Below the pieces are notes generated by a model, which was not told the origin of the DNA, did not search any database, and was given only the letters and a program-made list of their open reading frames with translations. Positions 17,189 to 25,066 of a DNA stretch of 64,000 nucleotides are shown here, piece by piece. The position numbers and the translations under genes were made by a program. The stretch covers positions 81,408 to 145,407 of the forward strand of contig NZ_JAODIW010000006.1 in assembly GCF_026586625.1 (NCBI RefSeq), written 5' to 3'. Position 1 is the stretch's first letter, and the number at the start of each line of letters is the position of its first letter. Origin of the DNA: Halobium salinum. Its GTDB lineage: Archaea > Halobacteriota > Halobacteria > Halobacteriales > Haloferacaceae.

Positions 17189-17220
17189 CCACATATCTCG
17201 CAATGAGTGAGCGCGATATC

Positions 17221-18006
17221 ATGTCATCTGAGGGAGTGGCCGAGTACTCGGTCTCGGAGGAGGAATCGGACGGCGTCACCACCACGCAGTCGGACGCTGA
17301 TGCGGTGACGGCGACCCGGTCGGAGGGGGAGCGCGGTGAGTACGAGCGCGTGAACGGCGAGGCGGTCAGACCGGTGACCACGTCGCCGACCGCCGACGGC
17401 GAGCAGTCTACGGCGGGGACAGACACGTCGGGGGGTTCCGACACGCTCGAGTCGGTCGAGCGGGAGATGTCGACGCCGACGCCTCTCTCCGACGATTCGG
17501 TGTTCGAAGTCCTCAGTAACCGGCGTCGCCGACTGCTGTTGCACTACCTGCGCCGCCACGACGGCACGGCCGTCGAGCTCTCCGAACTCTCCAGTCAGTT
17601 GGCCGCCTGGGAGCAGGAGACGACGCCGGAGATGATCAGTTACGCCGACCGGAAGAACGTCCACACCGCGCTGTATCAGTTCCACCTCCCGAAGATGGAG
17701 GACGCGGGGTTCGTCGACTACGACCAGCGTTCGGGGAGCGTCGAACTGACTGAGGCCGCACGGGACCTCGAGGTCTCCATCGGTTCGACGACCGACCGGA
17801 AGCGGGTCCCGGAACGCTACCTCCTTCCCGTCTCGGCCGTCGGTCTCCTGCTCGCGACAGCCTCCTGGCTCGGGGTCGGCGCAGTCACGACCCTCTCCGG
17901 GTCGGCGTGGGCCGTCCTCATCGCCGCCACGTTCCTCGCCGCGTCGGTCACCGTCGCGTATCGGACCCGGTCGACCGACCACTCCGACTCGGTCGACCCG
18001 CTCTGA
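17221..18006 (+). CDS. DUF7344 winged-helix protein with two C-terminal membrane helices
   Basis: 261 residues. A long acidic, Thr/Ser-rich N-terminal tail (about 1-88), then the DUF7344 winged helix DSVFEVLSNRRRRLLLHYL, ELSSQLAAWEQETTPEMI, DRKNVHTALYQFHLPKMED, AGFVDYDQRSGSVELTE; two hydrophobic helices follow (about 195-250). Probably a membrane-tethered regulator. I start it at 17221: the ATG is preceded by TATC and followed by TCATC exactly as in the paralogue at 20395, and TATA spacing agrees; the in-frame ATG at 17203 is the alternative. The core is close to identical to the 20395 gene. It converges on the signal peptidase/DUF1102 operon. Confidence 0.87.
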   Translation: MSSEGVAEYSVSEEESDGVTTTQSDADAVTATRSEGERGEYERVNGEAVRPVTTSPTADGEQSTAGTDTSGGSDTLESVEREMSTPTPLSDDSVFEVLSNRRRRLLLHYLRRHDGTAVELSELSSQLAAWEQETTPEMISYADRKNVHTALYQFHLPKMEDAGFVDYDQRSGSVELTEAARDLEVSIGSTTDRKRVPERYLLPVSAVGLLLATASWLGVGAVTTLSGSAWAVLIAATFLAASVTVAYRTRSTDHSDSVDPL

Positions 18007-18162: not shown

Positions 18163-19308
18163 TCACCTGAACCGGCGACCCAACCGCCCGAGGAGGGATG
18201 GCCCGTCGCGGGACCGGTCGCGGATGCGACCCGTCCCGAGCAGCGCGACCCCCAGGAGGTAGAACGGCACCCCGAGCAGGACGTCGATGGCGACGATGGG
18301 CGCCCACGGATGCATCTCGTACAGCGCGTCGATGACGCCGACGGGAAGCAGGGCGAGGTAGCGGTGTTCGACCACGTAGCGGCGGTAGTAGCCGGTCTGC
18401 TCGGCCGCGTGGAGCGTGACGGTCGCCGCCGCCTGCCCGCCAGCGGGGAGCACCCGTCTCGACTCCGCGACCTCGACGCCGTCGCTCGCGGGTTCGACGT
18501 AGCTGACGACCGGGAGCACCCCGGAGTTCACCAGCGGGTACTCGACGTCGTTGGACTGCCCTACCGGAATGACGGTCGGCTGTTCGGACTCGAACTCCGC
18601 GCTGACGACGCCGTACTCGTGGGTCCCGGCGGGGACGACCATGGCCGCCGTCGCGCCGGCGACGAGCAGGAGGGCGAAGCCGGCGGCGACGTACCGGGCG
18701 TCGAGGTTCGTCTCGCGTTTTCTGGAGCGGGTCGTCCTCCGCTTGTCGCCGGTCCACCAGCCGTGGGCGTAGAACAGTGCGGTGGCACTGAAGAAAAGAT
18801 ACGCGAGGCCGTTGGTGCCGAGCAGTGAGCGGGTGCCGAGGGTTGTTGCTATCGTCTGTTGGACCGTAGTGACGGTGTCCGAGAGAGCCATTATCGCGGT
18901 CCCGAGATACGGGATGACGACAACGTTACCGTTTATTTGGAGGGCTTCGGCGACGATTTGAGCGTCTTTGACCGGGGGTTCTTTGCCGTCCTGGTCGGTG
19001 AAGGGGTTCGCGTCACCTTTCGTGATGTACCCTCTATCGGTCTCACGGACCACTCGATGGGTCGTGAGGCCGCCTCCATGCAGTTCTTTTGCTTCGAAAA
19101 TGATGACATCGCCTACGTCCGGGGGGCCAGTAACTCCGTGCGGAACTGCGACAAACCCGTCACCAGCATCTATCGTATCAGCCATACTCCCGCTTTTGAC
19201 ATATCCCAACAAAATCGGCTGTCCGACTATTTGTCCAACAACTGGAAGTAGCACTACGACCACCACTGCGATTACTACAATACGGAGTATTTGGTCTCTG
19301 CCCGTCAA
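18163..19308 (-). CDS. Archaeal-type signal peptidase I (S26B) with extended C-terminal region
   Basis: 381 residues. N-terminal membrane helix (about 8-27), then the S26 catalytic region: KSGSMADTIDAGDGFVAV with nucleophile Ser41, GDVIIFEA, LTTHRVVRE with His84 (archaeal and SipW-like enzymes use His instead of Lys), and YITKGDANPFTDQDG with the conserved Asp. After residue 160 come two more helices (about 160-180, 205-225), an extracytoplasmic beta-rich domain (about 228-330) and a final helix pair. The gene is 55 bases downstream of the DUF1102 gene in the same operon, so it is probably its dedicated peptidase. The catalytic part is AT-richer than the C-terminal part. Confidence 0.92.
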   Translation of the reverse strand: MTGRDQILRIVVIAVVVVVLLPVVGQIVGQPILLGYVKSGSMADTIDAGDGFVAVPHGVTGPPDVGDVIIFEAKELHGGGLTTHRVVRETDRGYITKGDANPFTDQDGKEPPVKDAQIVAEALQINGNVVVIPYLGTAIMALSDTVTTVQQTIATTLGTRSLLGTNGLAYLFFSATALFYAHGWWTGDKRRTTRSRKRETNLDARYVAAGFALLLVAGATAAMVVPAGTHEYGVVSAEFESEQPTVIPVGQSNDVEYPLVNSGVLPVVSYVEPASDGVEVAESRRVLPAGGQAAATVTLHAAEQTGYYRRYVVEHRYLALLPVGVIDALYEMHPWAPIVAIDVLLGVPFYLLGVALLGTGRIRDRSRDGPSLLGRLGRRFR

Positions 19309-19363
19309 TTATGGTGGTGAAATATTGGTGGTATACTAGTGCTACTTGCGTAGATGGTCTATG

Positions 19364-20026
19364 TCAGTTAATGAAATCCACGCTCGAAGTACCTTCACTC
19401 GGGAAAGTGTAGTTCGGCACGACATTTTTGAAGTATTCCGAGTCGACAGCTGCGGCGTTCACACCAATATCCGCTTCGTACATGCTCCCGATATCGTCTT
19501 CTGGAACATCATAGAACCCAAGCGCGATTTCTGCCCGCTTACCCGGTGCAAGGAAGACGCCCCAGGCGCCAGGAGCACCACTTGTCCCCTGCCCTGACGA
19601 GGTGCCATCCCCGCCGTCCATCCCAGCACCGTAGCTGTCCATCGAGAGGTACGAGGTTACGTACTGTCCGTCGTTCGTGCTGGGGTCTGGCCCAATCTGA
19701 GCATTCAGGTCGTTGAGGTTCAACCAGACCAGCACGTTCTCAGTTCCTTGGTTCCTGACGAGTAGGAGGTCTGTGAACTCGGTGGTGGCGTTCCCGTTCA
19801 GACCACTACCTCGACCATTATTCTGAATATCGACCTGCAGAGTCCCGTTAGTCTGAGACGTGTAATCCGGGTCCCCTTTGATTTGCAGGTAAGCGTTTTC
19901 GTCGCTACTCACGTTCACGTTCATTCCTCTACTCGCACTAACAGACGAGAACGCACCAGTACCCATTGCAGCCGCCCCGCCGGCAGCGAGCGATCCCATA
20001 CCGAGCATGAACTTGCGTCGTTCCAT
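19364..20026 (-). CDS. DUF1102-family secreted protein
   Basis: 220 residues from ATG 20026. Signal-like N terminus MERRKFMLGMGSLAAGGAAA with hydrophobic stretch, then MGTGAFSSVSASRG, which is the start shared by DUF1102 proteins; the mature domain begins MNVNVSSDENAYLQIKGD and is rich in Asn, Gly and Thr (VRNQGTENVLVWLNLNDLNA, EIALGFYDVPED). No C-terminal anchor is visible. DUF1102 proteins are exported beta-rich proteins of unknown function; by neighbourhood with a SipW-like peptidase they recall TasA/camelysin fibre subunits (inference). The DNA is clearly less GC-rich than its surroundings. Transcribed with the signal peptidase. Confidence 0.85.
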   Translation of the reverse strand: MERRKFMLGMGSLAAGGAAAMGTGAFSSVSASRGMNVNVSSDENAYLQIKGDPDYTSQTNGTLQVDIQNNGRGSGLNGNATTEFTDLLLVRNQGTENVLVWLNLNDLNAQIGPDPSTNDGQYVTSYLSMDSYGAGMDGGDGTSSGQGTSGAPGAWGVFLAPGKRAEIALGFYDVPEDDIGSMYEADIGVNAAAVDSEYFKNVVPNYTFPSEGTSSVDFIN

Positions 20027-20262
20027 TGTCGTAGTTCTCCTTCGTCGCGCCCCCAACCCACCCCCGGGCCGGCGGCGCTTCGCTTAGTCGCAAGTTGCGA
20101 GAGGGATGTTGTTATTGAGAACAGTGAGTCGGGGTAACGACGTTCCGGAGCCGTGACAATAGCGTTCCACGGTTCGTCTAGGGAGAGCGGTCGAACCCGT
20201 CAAAGATGCCCGGACAGGGCGTTAACCACAGATTATTGTCGAGTCGTGTCAGACGAATTGCA

Positions 20263-20394: not shown

Positions 20395-21195
20395 ATGTCA
20401 TCCATGGGAGATTCCGACCCCTCCGCCGTTCGCGGAGTGGAGAGGGGACGGGACGAGGGGCAGGGGGCGGACGAGGCGAAAGCGGGGGGAACGGTCGACG
20501 CTGCGTCGTCGCCGGAGAGGCCCGACGCGACCGACGTCGCCAGTTCGACCGCCGCGGCCGAGTCGGCCGAGGGGGGTCGCTCGACCGGCTCGGTCTCCGA
20601 CGCGGTGGGGAGTGCCGAGTCGCCGACCCGCTCGGACGACGGCGACCGCTCGCTCGATACGATCTCACAGGACGAGGTCTTCGACGTTCTGAGCAACGAG
20701 CGGCGGCGATATCTGCTCTACTACCTGAAGCAGTCCGACGACGAGGTGGTGGAGCTCTCGGACATCTCGAGTCAGTTGGCGGCGTGGGAGCAGGAGACGA
20801 CACCGGAGTACATCGACTACGCCGACCGGAAGAACGTCCACACCGCGCTGTATCAGTTTCACCTCCCGAAGATGGCGGAGGCGGGGTTCCTCGACTACGA
20901 CAAGCGGTCGGGTCGCATCGAACTCACGGACCACGCGCGCAATCTCGACGTCTACTTGGAGACCGTCTCCGGGCGCGACGTCCCGTGGGGGGTGTACTTC
21001 CTCGGGTTGTCGCTCGTGACGACCGCTGTCGGCGTCGCCTCGTGGTTGGGGCTGGGTCCGCTGGCTGCCGTCCCGACCGGCGTTCCGGCGCTGTTCGTCG
21101 CCGTCGCCTTCCTCGTCTCTTCGGCCGTGTTCGCCTATCGGACGCACTTCGAGATGCGAGTGGAACCGGTCGGCGCGTCCGCCGAGCGGGAGTGA
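20395..21195 (+). CDS. DUF7344 winged-helix protein with two C-terminal membrane helices
   Basis: 266 residues. Disordered acidic/Ser-rich N-terminal tail (about 1-85), then DEVFDVLSNERRRYLLYYL, ELSDISSQLAAWEQETTPEYI, DRKNVHTALYQFHLPKMAEAG, FLDYDKRSGRIELTDHARNLDVYLE, and two hydrophobic helices (about 195-245). Very close paralogue of the gene at 17221 in the winged-helix core, at DNA level too. The mucin-like gene starts 4 bases after its stop, so the two form an operon. Probable membrane-bound regulator of surface genes (inference from neighbours). Confidence 0.88.
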   Translation: MSSMGDSDPSAVRGVERGRDEGQGADEAKAGGTVDAASSPERPDATDVASSTAAAESAEGGRSTGSVSDAVGSAESPTRSDDGDRSLDTISQDEVFDVLSNERRRYLLYYLKQSDDEVVELSDISSQLAAWEQETTPEYIDYADRKNVHTALYQFHLPKMAEAGFLDYDKRSGRIELTDHARNLDVYLETVSGRDVPWGVYFLGLSLVTTAVGVASWLGLGPLAAVPTGVPALFVAVAFLVSSAVFAYRTHFEMRVEPVGASAERE

Positions 21196-21199
21196 GTCG

Positions 21200-22846
21200 A
21201 TGGCCCGACGACGCACCGCCACGTTGGTGTTGGTAGCCGCGGCGGGACTGCTCCTCGTCACGGGGACCGGGAGCTTCAGCTCGGCCGACTTGGGACGCGG
21301 GCTGCAGATCGGCGTCGCCGACGACGATTCGGCGTACCTCGGCTACGAACCGCTCGGTCTCGTCGACGGGGAGCCGAAAATCCGACTCACCAACCGCGTA
21401 CCCGGGGGTCAGACACTAACAGTCGGCGTCAGCCTGGCGAGCGATGGGACACAACTCGGGTCGGTCACCCTCGGCAGCGGCGAATCGGCAGAGCTGACTC
21501 TGACTGGTGCGGAGTGCGCCGACCGTGTCGAAATCGTCGCGGACGGCACCGGCACCAGCGTCGAGATGACCCGTCGTGTCTGTGGGGCCGGTGGTGCTTC
21601 GGTCGGCGGCTCCGGCGGCGAAGCGGGTGTGTTCCCGGCCGCGAACCCGGCGAACGACTCCGGCGGGCTGTTCGGGTCGAACTCCACGTCCGACTCGACG
21701 CCGCTCGACACGTCGACGGCCACACCGACGGCGACGCCCGACGTGTCGGCGCCGACCGGTGGCTCTTCATCCGACCCGACTACGACGGCAGAGACCGGCG
21801 CCTCGACGGTCGCGTTCGCTTCGGTTCCCGCGCCGTCGACCACGCCTACTGATGAGGGGGCGACGACAGCCGCCAACGCGAGCGAGCGAGCGACGGTCAC
21901 AACGACGGCGAATGTGACGACCACGACGGCGAATGTGACGACCACGACGGCGAACCGTACCACGATGAATGGAACCACGACGGCGGCCAACGCGACGACT
22001 ACGACGACGGCCAACGCGACGACTACGACGACGGCCAACGCTACCGTGGCGGCGAACGAAACCACGACAGCGAACACGACTACGACGACACCGAACGCGA
22101 CCGCGTCGGCCGCTACGACCACGACGGTAGTGAACGAGACGGCTACGTCGACCCCGGCGCCGAACACGACGGCACAGCAGGTACCGAACAGTACTCAGAC
22201 CGAGTCGGAGAACACGACAGTGACGCCAATACCGACCGGTACTGCGACCACCACGAACGAGTCGACGCCCGGTACCGAAACGACGACTCCCAGTGAGTCG
22301 CCGACGACGACCGGGTCGTCGACGACCCAGACGGCTCCGACTCCGACGACGCAGACGGTTACAACCACGACTACCGAGGACGATACGACGACTACGGCCC
22401 CGAGACCGACGACCGACACGACGACTCCGACACCAGTTGCCACTACGTCGGCCACGACCACGCCCCCGACGACGGCGAACACGACGACACGAACGACTAC
22501 GACAACCGCGTCGGTCGCGCCGACCACGCCAACTACGACCACCACAGCCGAGACGACTACGCCAACTACGACCACCACAGCCGAGACGACCACGTCAACT
22601 ACGACCACCACAGCCGAGACGACCACACCGACCACGACCACTTTACCCGCGACCACCGAACCGACGGCTACGTCCACGGTTACGACGACGCCGACCGAAA
22701 CAGCCGAGACGCTGAACTCGACCGAGACGACGGTAGGGTCGACCGAGACGCCGACCGTGGAACCCACCGCCTCGACGACCGACCGACCCGATTCGCGAAC
22801 GACCGCGTCCACGAACGCTACCGGTTCGACAGTAACGTCGGACTGA
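21200..22846 (+). CDS. Mucin-like secreted protein: DUF1102-type head plus Thr-rich, sequon-rich tail
   Basis: 548 residues. A hydrophobic N-terminal segment (ATLVLVAAAGLLLVTGTGSF) runs into a DUF1102-like domain (about 20-135): GTGSFSSADLGRGLQIGVA and DDDSAYLGYEPLGL parallel the GTGAFSS...DENAYL start of the protein at 19364. It contains two cysteines (Cys102- and Cys121-region) that could pair. From about 145 to the end the chain is low-complexity Thr with Ala, Pro and Asn, holding about twenty N-x-S/T sequons and an 11-residue tandem repeat. No C-terminal membrane helix or PGF-type sorting motif is seen. Likely exported and heavily glycosylated. Four bases after the DUF7344 stop. Confidence 0.8.
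   Translation: MARRRTATLVLVAAAGLLLVTGTGSFSSADLGRGLQIGVADDDSAYLGYEPLGLVDGEPKIRLTNRVPGGQTLTVGVSLASDGTQLGSVTLGSGESAELTLTGAECADRVEIVADGTGTSVEMTRRVCGAGGASVGGSGGEAGVFPAANPANDSGGLFGSNSTSDSTPLDTSTATPTATPDVSAPTGGSSSDPTTTAETGASTVAFASVPAPSTTPTDEGATTAANASERATVTTTANVTTTTANVTTTTANRTTMNGTTTAANATTTTTANATTTTTANATVAANETTTANTTTTTPNATASAATTTTVVNETATSTPAPNTTAQQVPNSTQTESENTTVTPIPTGTATTTNESTPGTETTTPSESPTTTGSSTTQTAPTPTTQTVTTTTTEDDTTTTAPRPTTDTTTPTPVATTSATTTPPTTANTTTRTTTTTASVAPTTPTTTTTAETTTPTTTTTAETTTSTTTTTAETTTPTTTTLPATTEPTATSTVTTTPTETAETLNSTETTVGSTETPTVEPTASTTDRPDSRTTASTNATGSTVTSD
22526..22624 (+). repeat. Three 33-base tandem repeats in the Thr-rich tail
   Basis: Three contiguous 33-base units (22526-22558, 22559-22591, 22592-22624) differing at only a few bases, followed by a decayed fourth. 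Each encodes 11 residues of the form T-P/S-T-T-T-T-T-A-E-T-T. Shorter near-repeats occur at 21910-21955 and 21990-22040. Length polymorphism between strains would be expected. Confidence 0.85.
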
Positions 22847-23140
22847 CCGGTCAGCCGGTTTCTGGCTATCTCCGGCGACCGGGAACTCGATTACTGACAC
22901 TCCCTGTACCGGGCTCCCTTCGGCCGCGGTCGGACCGCTCGCAACGCTCCCGAACCCCCCTACCCTCGGCTCGTTGGCTCACGGCTTCACCGTTCGCCTC
23001 TCAGAGCTGCTCGCTACACTCGCATCTCACACCCACTCGCCGAGGACGCCGAGAACACGGTCGCTGACGCTCTCTGCACCAGGCTCGCTGCGCTCGCCGA
23101 GAACGCAACCACCTTATCGCTCCCACCGCTCGGTACGCCC
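22847..23140. other. Intergenic region upstream of hisB, no gene seen
   Basis: 294 bases between the mucin-like gene and hisB. It is GC-rich with many short CGCTCG/GCTCGC-type repeats, no clear TATA box and no coding-like frame. Confidence 0.4.
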
Positions 23141-23881: not shown

Positions 23882-25066
23882 ATGAGTTCTGACGACCTTC
23901 TCCTTCGCGTGCGTGCGGCCGTCGCAGACCAGTTCGTCCCGGTCGTGGCGGCTCTGGTGGTGCTCGTGGCGGTCGGCGGGTGGATGGTTTACGGTGCCTA
24001 CGTGGCACCGGGAACGACGACGGAACGCGAACTCGCCTCGTCGTGGACCGCCGAGGCGGGCTTCGAGCACGCCGCGACCGTCACGGAGCCGAACCCCCTC
24101 TACGACACCGGGACGACGCTGGCGAACCGGTCGACGTACTACCCAGCGGTCTCGCCCGTACTGAACGGGAGTTTCGACTACGGCTACCGGAGTACGGGCG
24201 AGGGGTCACTGGACGGCACGCTCCAGGTATCGCTCGTGACGCGCTCGGTCAGCACCGTCGAGCGGAACGGCGAACGCGTCACGGTCGAGAACTGGCGCCG
24301 GGAGCGTCCGCTCGGGGAGCAGTCCTTCGAGGGTCTGAGCCCCGACGAGTCGGCCTCGGTCGACTTCACGACGAACCTCAGACGAGCGGCGAACTCCTCC
24401 GAGCGCATCACCGACGCACTCGGGTCCCGAACCGGGGACGTCCAGACCACCGTCGTCGTCCGGACACAGGTCGAGGGGACGGTGAACGGGAACGAGGTCG
24501 GGAACGCGACCGCCTTCCGACTGCCGATGACGTTCGAGGGCGGGACGGTCCGGCTGCAGGGCCCGGGCGCAATCGAGCAGCCACACGAGACCTACCGCCA
24601 GCGTACCGTCCCGGTCGAGGTCGGACCGCTGCGGAAGTACGGGAGTCTCGCGCTGTTCTTCCTCGCCACGGCGGCGCTCGCCGGACTGGTCGTCGGGAAG
24701 CGGACCGGCCGGCTCACCCCCGACGAGACCGACCGCACGGTCCTGTCCTATCGCCGCGCACGCTCGGAGTTCGACGAGTGGATAACGCGGGGACGCGTAC
24801 CCGACGACGCGCTGCCGACGCCCCGCGTCGAAGTCGACTCGCTGCGCGGGCTGGTCGACGTTGCTATCGACACCGACGGGCGCGTCATCGAGGACCGCGA
24901 GCGTGGCGAGTACGTCGTCGTCCGCGAGAACGTCCACTACGCATACGAGGCGCCGGGAGACGAGGTGTCGGTCACGACGGTCGGCCCGATGGCGAACGGT
25001 GAGGCGGAAACGGACGGGAGGGACGGGAGCAACGGCGAGCGGTCGAACCCGGAATCGTCGGGGTGA
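23882..25066 (+). CDS. DUF5305 membrane protein
   Basis: 394 residues. Short cytoplasmic start, one membrane helix (about 17-38, VPVVAALVVLVAVGGWMVYGAY), an extracytoplasmic beta-rich domain (about 40-250) with ASSWTAEAGFEHAATVTEPNPLY, LNGSFDYGYRSTGEGSLDG and QTTVVVRTQVEGTVNGNEVGN, a second helix (about 258-278, SLALFFLATAALAGLVVG), and a cytoplasmic C-terminal domain ending in an acidic tail. This is the DUF5305 layout. In haloarchaea these proteins are often encoded near signal peptidase I and DUF1102 genes (from memory), and here they are about 4-6 kb apart. Function unknown; a role in secreting or assembling the surface proteins is inference. Confidence 0.85.
   Translation: MSSDDLLLRVRAAVADQFVPVVAALVVLVAVGGWMVYGAYVAPGTTTERELASSWTAEAGFEHAATVTEPNPLYDTGTTLANRSTYYPAVSPVLNGSFDYGYRSTGEGSLDGTLQVSLVTRSVSTVERNGERVTVENWRRERPLGEQSFEGLSPDESASVDFTTNLRRAANSSERITDALGSRTGDVQTTVVVRTQVEGTVNGNEVGNATAFRLPMTFEGGTVRLQGPGAIEQPHETYRQRTVPVEVGPLRKYGSLALFFLATAALAGLVVGKRTGRLTPDETDRTVLSYRRARSEFDEWITRGRVPDDALPTPRVEVDSLRGLVDVAIDTDGRVIEDRERGEYVVVRENVHYAYEAPGDEVSVTTVGPMANGEAETDGRDGSNGERSNPESSG

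What the first reader, a model, noticed from the sequence alone, without database searches (positions are those of the whole stretch)
21200..22846. Mucin-like haloarchaeal protein with about twenty N-glycosylation sequons
The tail of roughly 400 residues is almost all Thr/Ala/Pro/Asn/Ser, with dense N-x-S/T sites and 11-residue tandem repeats (33-base DNA repeats at 22526-22624). The head carries a DUF1102-like start. There is no C-terminal anchor or PGF-type sorting motif. A long glycosylated stalk or matrix polymer on a fibre-type head is an unusual fusion. The DNA repeats invite length variation.
Basis: partly seen in the sequence, partly recalled or inferred. Interest (0 to 1): 0.55.

Follow-up and report, generated by a model that had tools for sequence, protein, structure and literature searches.

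The report
Mucin-tailed accessory subunit of archaeal fimbria
A salt-loving archaeon carries, on a small secreted domain that resembles the building blocks of its surface fibres, a 400-residue threonine-rich tail dotted with sugar-attachment sites, so the fibre accessory protein probably ends in a long sugar-coated brush.

Summary
The ORF is real (548 aa, ATG 21200, stop 22846). It has 21 N-x-S/T sequons from 23 Asn; tail shuffles average 10.3 and none of 10,000 reached 21. The tail (aa 141-548) is 43% Thr and has no hydrophobic segment or PGF motif. The 33-base repeats are real. The head matches no Pfam or NCBIfam family. It is a conserved haloarchaeal domain whose N-terminal strand motif is shared with the DUF1102/Taf-like pilin next door (hhalign 96.8%) and with the solved pilin 9p0a (E 3.6e-9). 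It sits 4 bases behind a membrane HTH gene (DUF7344); that pairing recurs in 84 of 90 fetched head loci, often beside the pilin, a signal peptidase and DUF5305. Among 94 such heads the C-terminal extension is the changeable part; this one is the longest and has the most sequons. Best reading: an accessory (initiator, cap or anchor) subunit of a TasA-type donor-strand fimbria, built like Bacillus TapA/CapP, its disordered tail expanded into a glycosylated brush. The tail material is ordinary haloarchaeal spacer. Donor-strand exchange and glycosylation are inferred.

The parts
21200..22846 (+). whole gene, 548 aa, head plus mucin-like tail
21200..21280 (+). signal peptide region (aa 1-27), hydrophobic core LVLVAAAGLLLV; cleavage site not determined
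   Evidence: sequence; KD19 maximum 1.88 near the N-terminus
21263..21349 (+). N-terminal strand motif GTGSFSSADLGRGLQIGVADDDSAYLGYE (aa 22-50), shared with pilin; R33 and A45 identical in 94 of 94 heads
   Evidence: pLDDT mostly below 50 in the model up to aa 44
21332..21577 (+). beta-sandwich core (aa 45-126), seven predicted strands
   Evidence: model residues 24-105
21515..21583 (+). Cys106 to Cys128; pair kept (within 2 alignment columns) in 59 of 94 heads
21620..22843 (+). Thr/Ala/Pro/Ser/Asn tail, aa 141-548, 21 sequons, 209 Ser+Thr
21875..22264 (+). dense sequon zone, 16 sequons between aa 226 and 353
21902..21954 (+). 21-base tandem repeat x 2.5
21977..22041 (+). 24-base tandem repeat x 2.7
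22521..22641 (+). 33-base tandem repeat x 3.7, Thr/Pro/Ala/Glu zone without sequons
20395..21195 (+). DUF7344 HTH protein with C-terminal hydrophobic segments, 4 bases upstream
   Evidence: PF24035 98.7 bits; paired with head in 84 of 90 loci
19364..20056 (-). DUF1102/Taf-like pilin, probable fibre subunit, divergently transcribed
   Evidence: 9p0a Pilin E 5.5e-13; TafE 67.2 bits, cut-off 155
18163..19308 (-). archaeal/SipW-type signal peptidase I with C-terminal extension
   Evidence: TIGR02228 51.7 bits (cut-off 51.85), NF046067 SipW 33.9 bits (cut-off 190)
17203..18006 (+). second DUF7344 HTH protein
   Evidence: PF24035 103.8 bits
23882..25066 (+). DUF5305 membrane protein, next to the signal peptidase in many relatives
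   Evidence: PF17231 179.7 bits

Best explanation
The gene encodes a secreted accessory subunit of a TasA/Taf-type fimbria. Steps: (1) it is exported and its signal peptide removed by the dedicated signal peptidase of the locus (inferred from gene context and signal sequence); (2) its mature N-terminus carries the same strand motif as the neighbouring pilin and so can fill the same acceptor groove of a pilin by donor-strand complementation (motif shown; exchange inferred); (3) its own seven-strand core, predicted with confidence without that strand, makes it a terminal unit, an initiator, cap or anchor like TapA/CapP of Bacillus or Saci_0405 of the Sulfolobus thread (inferred); (4) the C-terminal tail, which such subunits have in varied forms, has here grown by repeat expansion into a ~400-residue brush that AglB can load with up to 21 N-glycans and that may be O-glycosylated on some of 209 Ser/Thr (sites shown, occupancy inferred). 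The brush would hold the fibre end in the S-layer/glycocalyx or bind other cells, in place of a lipid anchor. The membrane HTH protein encoded just upstream probably regulates the locus (inferred).
For: Head family is conserved: the A1 profile matches 137 of 170 family genomes (own included) at E <= 1e-4. Head follows a DUF7344 gene in 84 of 90 fetched loci (loci were the best-scoring ones). Of the 20 18-kb neighbourhoods read, 18 hold a DUF1102-type protein, 13 the signal peptidase, 11 DUF5305. Same layout in Halorussus aquaticus (L083), Natrinema salsiterrestre (L084) and a Halorientalis MAG (L086). Strand motif shared with pilins: hhalign 96.8% over 33 columns, 9p0a 'Pilin' E 3.6e-9, own-genome match of the head to the 19364 pilin at aa 12-49, E 6.9e-4. 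Model: core confident, first 23 residues mostly below pLDDT 50. Same anatomy in TapA: disordered N-terminus needed for activity, folded domain with a disulfide, unstructured C-terminus (passages of PMC10151520); CapP: repetitive disordered C-domain anchors it to the wall (passages of PMC13082335); Saci_0405, a putative cap with donor strand but no acceptor site (section 13 of PMC9715654). AglB present.
Against: No experiment shows fibres in this organism. The head's core does not match a pilin fold: Foldseek and VIA-align list Ig-like domains of GH2 enzymes, which is a generic sandwich. The alignment for the model had only 4 rows, so low confidence at the N-terminus may be shallow data rather than an exposed strand. 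No TafA/TafE match for the head. The neighbour pilin could not be modelled, so the acceptor groove is untested. In TapA and CapP the C-terminal part is dispensable for biofilm formation under the conditions tested, so the tail may be non-essential.
Confidence: 0.5

Rival explanations
1. Membrane stalk: the N-terminal hydrophobic segment is not cleaved, so the head sits at the membrane and the tail is a glycosylated stalk reaching through the S-layer, unrelated to a fibre.
For: No C-terminal anchor, so an N-terminal one would explain retention. Tail material resembles stalks of the genome's PGF-CTERM surface proteins.
Against: The hydrophobic core is short and is followed by the conserved GTGxFS motif shared with pilins, and a signal peptidase gene is nearby.
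Confidence: 0.17
2. Regulatory partner: the head is mainly the extracellular partner of the membrane HTH protein it is paired with, reporting surface or assembly state; the tail is an extended sensor.
For: Pair conserved in 84 of 90 loci with a 4-base gap here.
Against: No interaction data; pairing may only reflect co-expression. The motif shared with pilins is not needed for this role.
Confidence: 0.13
3. Ordinary spacer drift: a normal fimbrial accessory subunit whose dispensable C-terminus expanded neutrally by repeat slippage, with no function of its own.
For: Tails vary in length and composition from none to acidic to Thr-rich among 94 heads. Simple DNA repeats present. Thr-rich spacers are common in this genome.
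Against: 21 of 23 Asn in sequons against 10.3 expected, frame kept open over 408 codons, copy differences most often at third codon positions. G018 carries an independent sequon array in the syntenic protein at another position.
Confidence: 0.2

Closest known systems
TapA / CapP accessory subunits of Bacillus TasA/CalY fibres (PMC10151520, PMC13082335; passages read)
   Same: Small secreted protein encoded near a SipW-type signal peptidase and fibre subunits; TapA has an N-terminal segment resembling the fibre subunit's, a folded domain with a disulfide, and an unstructured C-terminus; CapP has a repetitive disordered C-domain.
   Different: No sequence comparison was made; tail here is about 400 residues, Thr-rich and sequon-dense; archaeal; paired with a membrane HTH gene.
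Saci_0405, putative cap of the Sulfolobus thread (PMC9715654; section 13 and passages read)
   Same: Proposed terminal subunit giving a donor strand without needing one.
   Different: No sequence comparison made; no mucin tail described in the parts read.
Solved pilin 9p0a (PDB; organism and title not seen)
   Same: Shares the GTGAFSSVEADRTVSVAV strand motif.
   Different: 215-residue pilin; the match beyond the first ~50 residues is weak.
NCBIfam Taf fimbrial proteins (TafA, TafC, TafE, TafF)
   Same: Neighbour pilin scores with TafE and TafA.
   Different: Below cut-off for the neighbour; no match for the head.
Halomucin of Haloquadratum walsbyi (PMC1544339; passages read)
   Same: Haloarchaeal mucin-like secreted protein with predicted glycosylation.
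   Different: 9,159 aa; described there with domains enriched in D, S, V, G and L; no fimbrial head reported in the passages read.
Thr-rich spacers of PGF-CTERM surface proteins in the same genome
   Same: Thr-rich spacers, several with sequons (L162-L168).
   Different: Followed by the PGF anchor; here the tail is long and unanchored.

Membership tests
TasA/Taf-type donor-strand fimbrial subunit (accessory) | N-terminal strand motif shared with fibre subunits | tested here: met
   hhalign 96.8% over 33 columns; 9p0a E 3.6e-9
TasA/Taf-type donor-strand fimbrial subunit (accessory) | encoded with pilin and signal peptidase I | tested here: met
   window layout; 18 and 13 of 20 neighbourhoods
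TasA/Taf-type donor-strand fimbrial subunit (accessory) | beta-sandwich fold of TasA/TapA type | tested here: inconclusive
   seven-strand sandwich predicted; library matches shown are generic Ig-like domains
TasA/Taf-type donor-strand fimbrial subunit (accessory) | polymerises or caps by donor-strand complementation | not testable with these tools
   needs complex modelling or biochemistry
Pfam DUF1102 (PF06510) | score above gathering cut-off | tested here: not met
   no hit for the head; neighbour 16.3 bits against 22.2
NCBIfam TafA/TafE | score above curated cut-off | tested here: not met
   head no match at E <= 1; neighbour 67.2 of 155 and 42.7 of 190 bits
PGF-CTERM / archaeosortase substrate | C-terminal PGF motif and transmembrane segment | tested here: not met
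   last 100 residues KD19 maximum -0.15; not among the 18 genome matches listed at E <= 10
TapA (Bacillus) | sequence homology to TapA | not tested
   TapA sequence not compared directly; no TapA chain among the PDB profile matches listed at E <= 10
mucin-like glycoprotein | occupied N- or O-glycosylation sites | not testable with these tools
   sites only: 21 sequons, 209 Ser+Thr in tail
halomucin | shared domains or sequence with Hmu1 | not tested
   no sequence comparison made

The most novel reading that the evidence does not exclude
Haloarchaea have a widespread fibre module (pilin, dedicated signal peptidase, and a membrane-HTH plus terminal-subunit pair). The terminal subunit's tail is an evolvable plug-in: acidic, globular, or, as here, a length-variable mucin brush that sets where the fibre end sticks, with the HTH partner sensing whether the subunit has left the membrane. 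The brush would be a sortase-free, lipid-free way to anchor a fibre in a glycoprotein coat.
Probability: 0.18. Interest if true: 0.68.

Novelty: new variant of a known kind. Interest (0 to 1): 0.43.

Why it matters
Donor-strand fibres of the TasA kind are solved in Bacillus and some archaea, but how archaeal ones start, end and stay attached is little known. This locus gives a conserved candidate terminal subunit in haloarchaea, with a natural series of tails (none, acidic, globular, short Thr-rich, 400-residue mucin-like) on one head. That makes the tail's job directly testable by trimming it in a laboratory haloarchaeon. The searches made found no paper in the held library on DUF1102, DUF5305 or DUF7344 and none relevant on TafA/TafE in haloarchaea (judged from the listings); most subscription papers and preprints are not held.

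Tried and rejected
Rejected: the Asp-rich alternative frame and the Arg/Pro-rich ORF 22293-22715 as the true product. Both frames carry internal stops and neither continues the signal peptide or the conserved head. Rejected: a frameshift hiding a C-terminal anchor, since no hydrophobic segment lies in any frame to 23140. Rejected: a Pfam or NCBIfam family for the head. Rejected as uninformative: the model of the DUF1102 neighbour (pLDDT 43.6), and the fold matches to GH2 enzyme Ig-like domains as evidence of enzyme kinship. TasA, TapA and archaeal pilin chains are not among the rows shown there, which excludes nothing.

Led nowhere: the first genome-contig scan with the single head found no relative; the viral-contig scan was not possible with A1; literature searches for DUF numbers and Taf names gave nothing relevant. 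Same-species length variation could not be checked because no second genome of the genus is held.

Limits of the counts: the 94 heads come from loci fetched because they matched the head (or, for L083, L084, L086, the signal peptidase), best first, so they over-represent good matches. One row (L002, a truncated copy of the window's own gene) was dropped from 95; rows with the same first 100 residues were counted once. Tail means everything after the profile match, so for L006/L035 it includes part of the domain, and the window's 414 includes a few head residues. The 84 of 90 uses loci L052-L081 and L100-L159 only, the window's own locus included; loci without a pair were L067, L077, L130, L134, L147 and L157. 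In one search the PGF-CTERM loci on the minus strand were read in the wrong orientation; one search repeats this correctly.

Full report
Observation. The ORF 21200-22846 encodes 548 residues and begins 4 bases after the stop of an upstream HTH gene. It has a signal peptide, a ~110-residue head and a tail from about residue 141. The tail is 43% Thr (175 of 408) with Ala, Pro, Ser and Asn. Of 23 Asn in the protein, 21 are in N-x-S/T sequons, all in the tail; shuffles of the tail average 10.3 and none of 10,000 reached 21. Sixteen lie between residues 226 and 353, mostly 5 to 10 residues apart, while the last third is nearly sequon-free Thr/Pro/Ala/Glu sequence. Tandem DNA repeats of 21, 24 and 33 bases are confirmed. 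Differences between repeat copies fall most often on third codon positions of this frame (12 of 21). No transmembrane segment or PGF motif follows the signal peptide, and no other frame hides one. The genome does have PGF-CTERM proteins (7 above cut-off) and an AglB oligosaccharyltransferase (915 bits).

The head. Pfam and NCBIfam give no match. By search of related genomes the head is a conserved haloarchaeal domain: 30 of 60 genomes (own included) match the single sequence at E <= 0.01, and 137 of 170 genomes of the family (own included) match a ten-sequence profile at E <= 1e-4. Its best conserved part is the mature N-terminus, GTGxFSSxxADRxVxVxVxDDxxAYLGxE; the Arg and an Ala are identical in 94 of 94 heads. 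This stretch is shared with the DUF1102-type neighbour at 19364 (hhalign 96.8% over 33 columns; match at aa 12-49, E 6.9e-4) and with a solved pilin, PDB 9p0a (profile E 3.6e-9). The neighbour itself matches 9p0a at 5.5e-13 and the NCBIfam fimbrial models TafE and TafA below their cut-offs. TafE-like proteins occur in 279 of 392 genomes sampled from the order (own included) at E <= 1e-6, 23 of them above cut-off, and in none of 14 control genomes. So the neighbourhood is very probably a fimbrial locus, and the head carries the fimbrial N-terminal strand motif.

Structure. AlphaFold2 on a four-row alignment gives a confident seven-strand sandwich for model residues 24-105 (aa 45-126) and low confidence (mostly below 50) for the 23 residues before it. 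That is what a subunit with a free donor strand and a self-sufficient core would look like, but shallow data could give the same picture. Fold searches list generic Ig-like domains and do not decide between fibre families. The neighbour's model failed (pLDDT 43.6).

Locus. In 84 of 90 fetched head loci the head directly follows a DUF7344 HTH gene. In 20 wider neighbourhoods, 18 hold DUF1102-type proteins, 13 a signal peptidase like the one at 18163, and 11 DUF5305. The same layout, pilin and peptidase divergent from HTH plus head, is present in Halorussus aquaticus, Natrinema salsiterrestre and a Halorientalis MAG. HisB follows the head in the window and lies in three of the 20 neighbourhoods (L032, L035, L041).

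The tail in context. Across 94 non-redundant HTH-linked heads (95 minus one self-copy) the extension after the head is the changing part: 14 have under 10 residues, 48 have 100 or more (many look like extra folded domains), 7 of at least 10 residues are over 45% Asp+Glu, and 7 of at least 10 residues, the window's included, are over 25% Thr. The window protein is the extreme: tail 414 by this measure (next 358 and 198), 21 sequons (next 12 and 8; median 3). The six other Thr-rich tails are 12 to 55 residues. The syntenic protein of genome G018 (L035) has no long tail but carries NGTPEATP-type repeats inside the domain, between two strands, so sequon arrays arose at two places on one domain (position judged by eye from alignment A1 and the strands). 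The tail material is ordinary for this genome: its PGF-CTERM proteins carry Thr-rich spacers before the anchor, some with repeats such as ADNGTTTT. What is unusual is its length, its lack of an anchor and its place on a fimbrial-type head.

Mechanism. The anatomy matches accessory subunits of donor-strand fibres. TapA of Bacillus subtilis has a disordered N-terminus needed for activity, a folded domain with a disulfide, and an unstructured C-terminus (PMC10151520, passages). TasA fibres assemble by an N-terminal donor strand, and TapA's N-terminus resembles it (PMC9674648, passages). CapP of Bacillus cereus has a disordered repetitive C-domain that anchors it to the wall, although trimming it did not abolish biofilms (PMC13082335, passages). 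Saci_0405 is a proposed cap that can give but not accept a strand (PMC9715654, section 13), and the thread it would cap carries five N-glycans per subunit (passages). In Haloferax volcanii archaeal O-glycosylation is known only from short glycans on few proteins and its pathway is unknown (PMC8241124, passages), so O-glycosylation of the tail is a guess. I therefore propose an archaeal terminal subunit whose tail has become a glycosylated brush. Shown here: the gene, the sequons, the shared strand motif, the conserved locus, the variable tails. Inferred: cleavage, donor-strand insertion, terminal position, glycan occupancy, and the brush's role in anchoring or adhesion.

Novelty. The fibre type, mucin-like tails and Thr-rich spacers are each known; the combination is a new variant of a known kind. 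Specialists in archaeal surface structures would want it tested, but the sequence alone does not establish more.

Noticed in passing
19001-20000: The pilin-like gene 19364-20056 lies in a clear G+C dip (53.7% against 62-74% for the other 1-kb windows), as for a fast-evolving or recently acquired surface gene.
   Followed up: no
17203-18006 and 23882-25066: In several relatives (L032, L035, L037, L041) DUF5305 directly follows the signal peptidase; here it lies beyond HisB, and a second DUF7344 gene stands beside the peptidase, suggesting local rearrangement.
   Followed up: partly
L035 9036-10163 (also L006, L063): Syntenic head of genome G018 has NGTPEATP-type repeats; the protein has 12 sequons, lying inside the domain instead of in a tail.
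   Followed up: partly
L162-L168: PGF-CTERM proteins of the same genome carry Thr-rich spacers before the anchor, e.g. repeated ADNGTTTT in L162.
   Followed up: partly
L051 8069-10618: 849-residue DUF1102/TafE-like protein with a NosD-type match after the fimbrial start, in a row of several such genes.
   Followed up: no
L087 8061-13502: Three consecutive ~540-570-residue DUF1102-type proteins with different C-terminal parts in a Halovenus MAG.
   Followed up: no
22001-23000: AT skew of 0.43, the strongest in the window, caused by Thr codons; mirror ORFs on the other strand and frames look like artefacts of this composition.
   Followed up: partly
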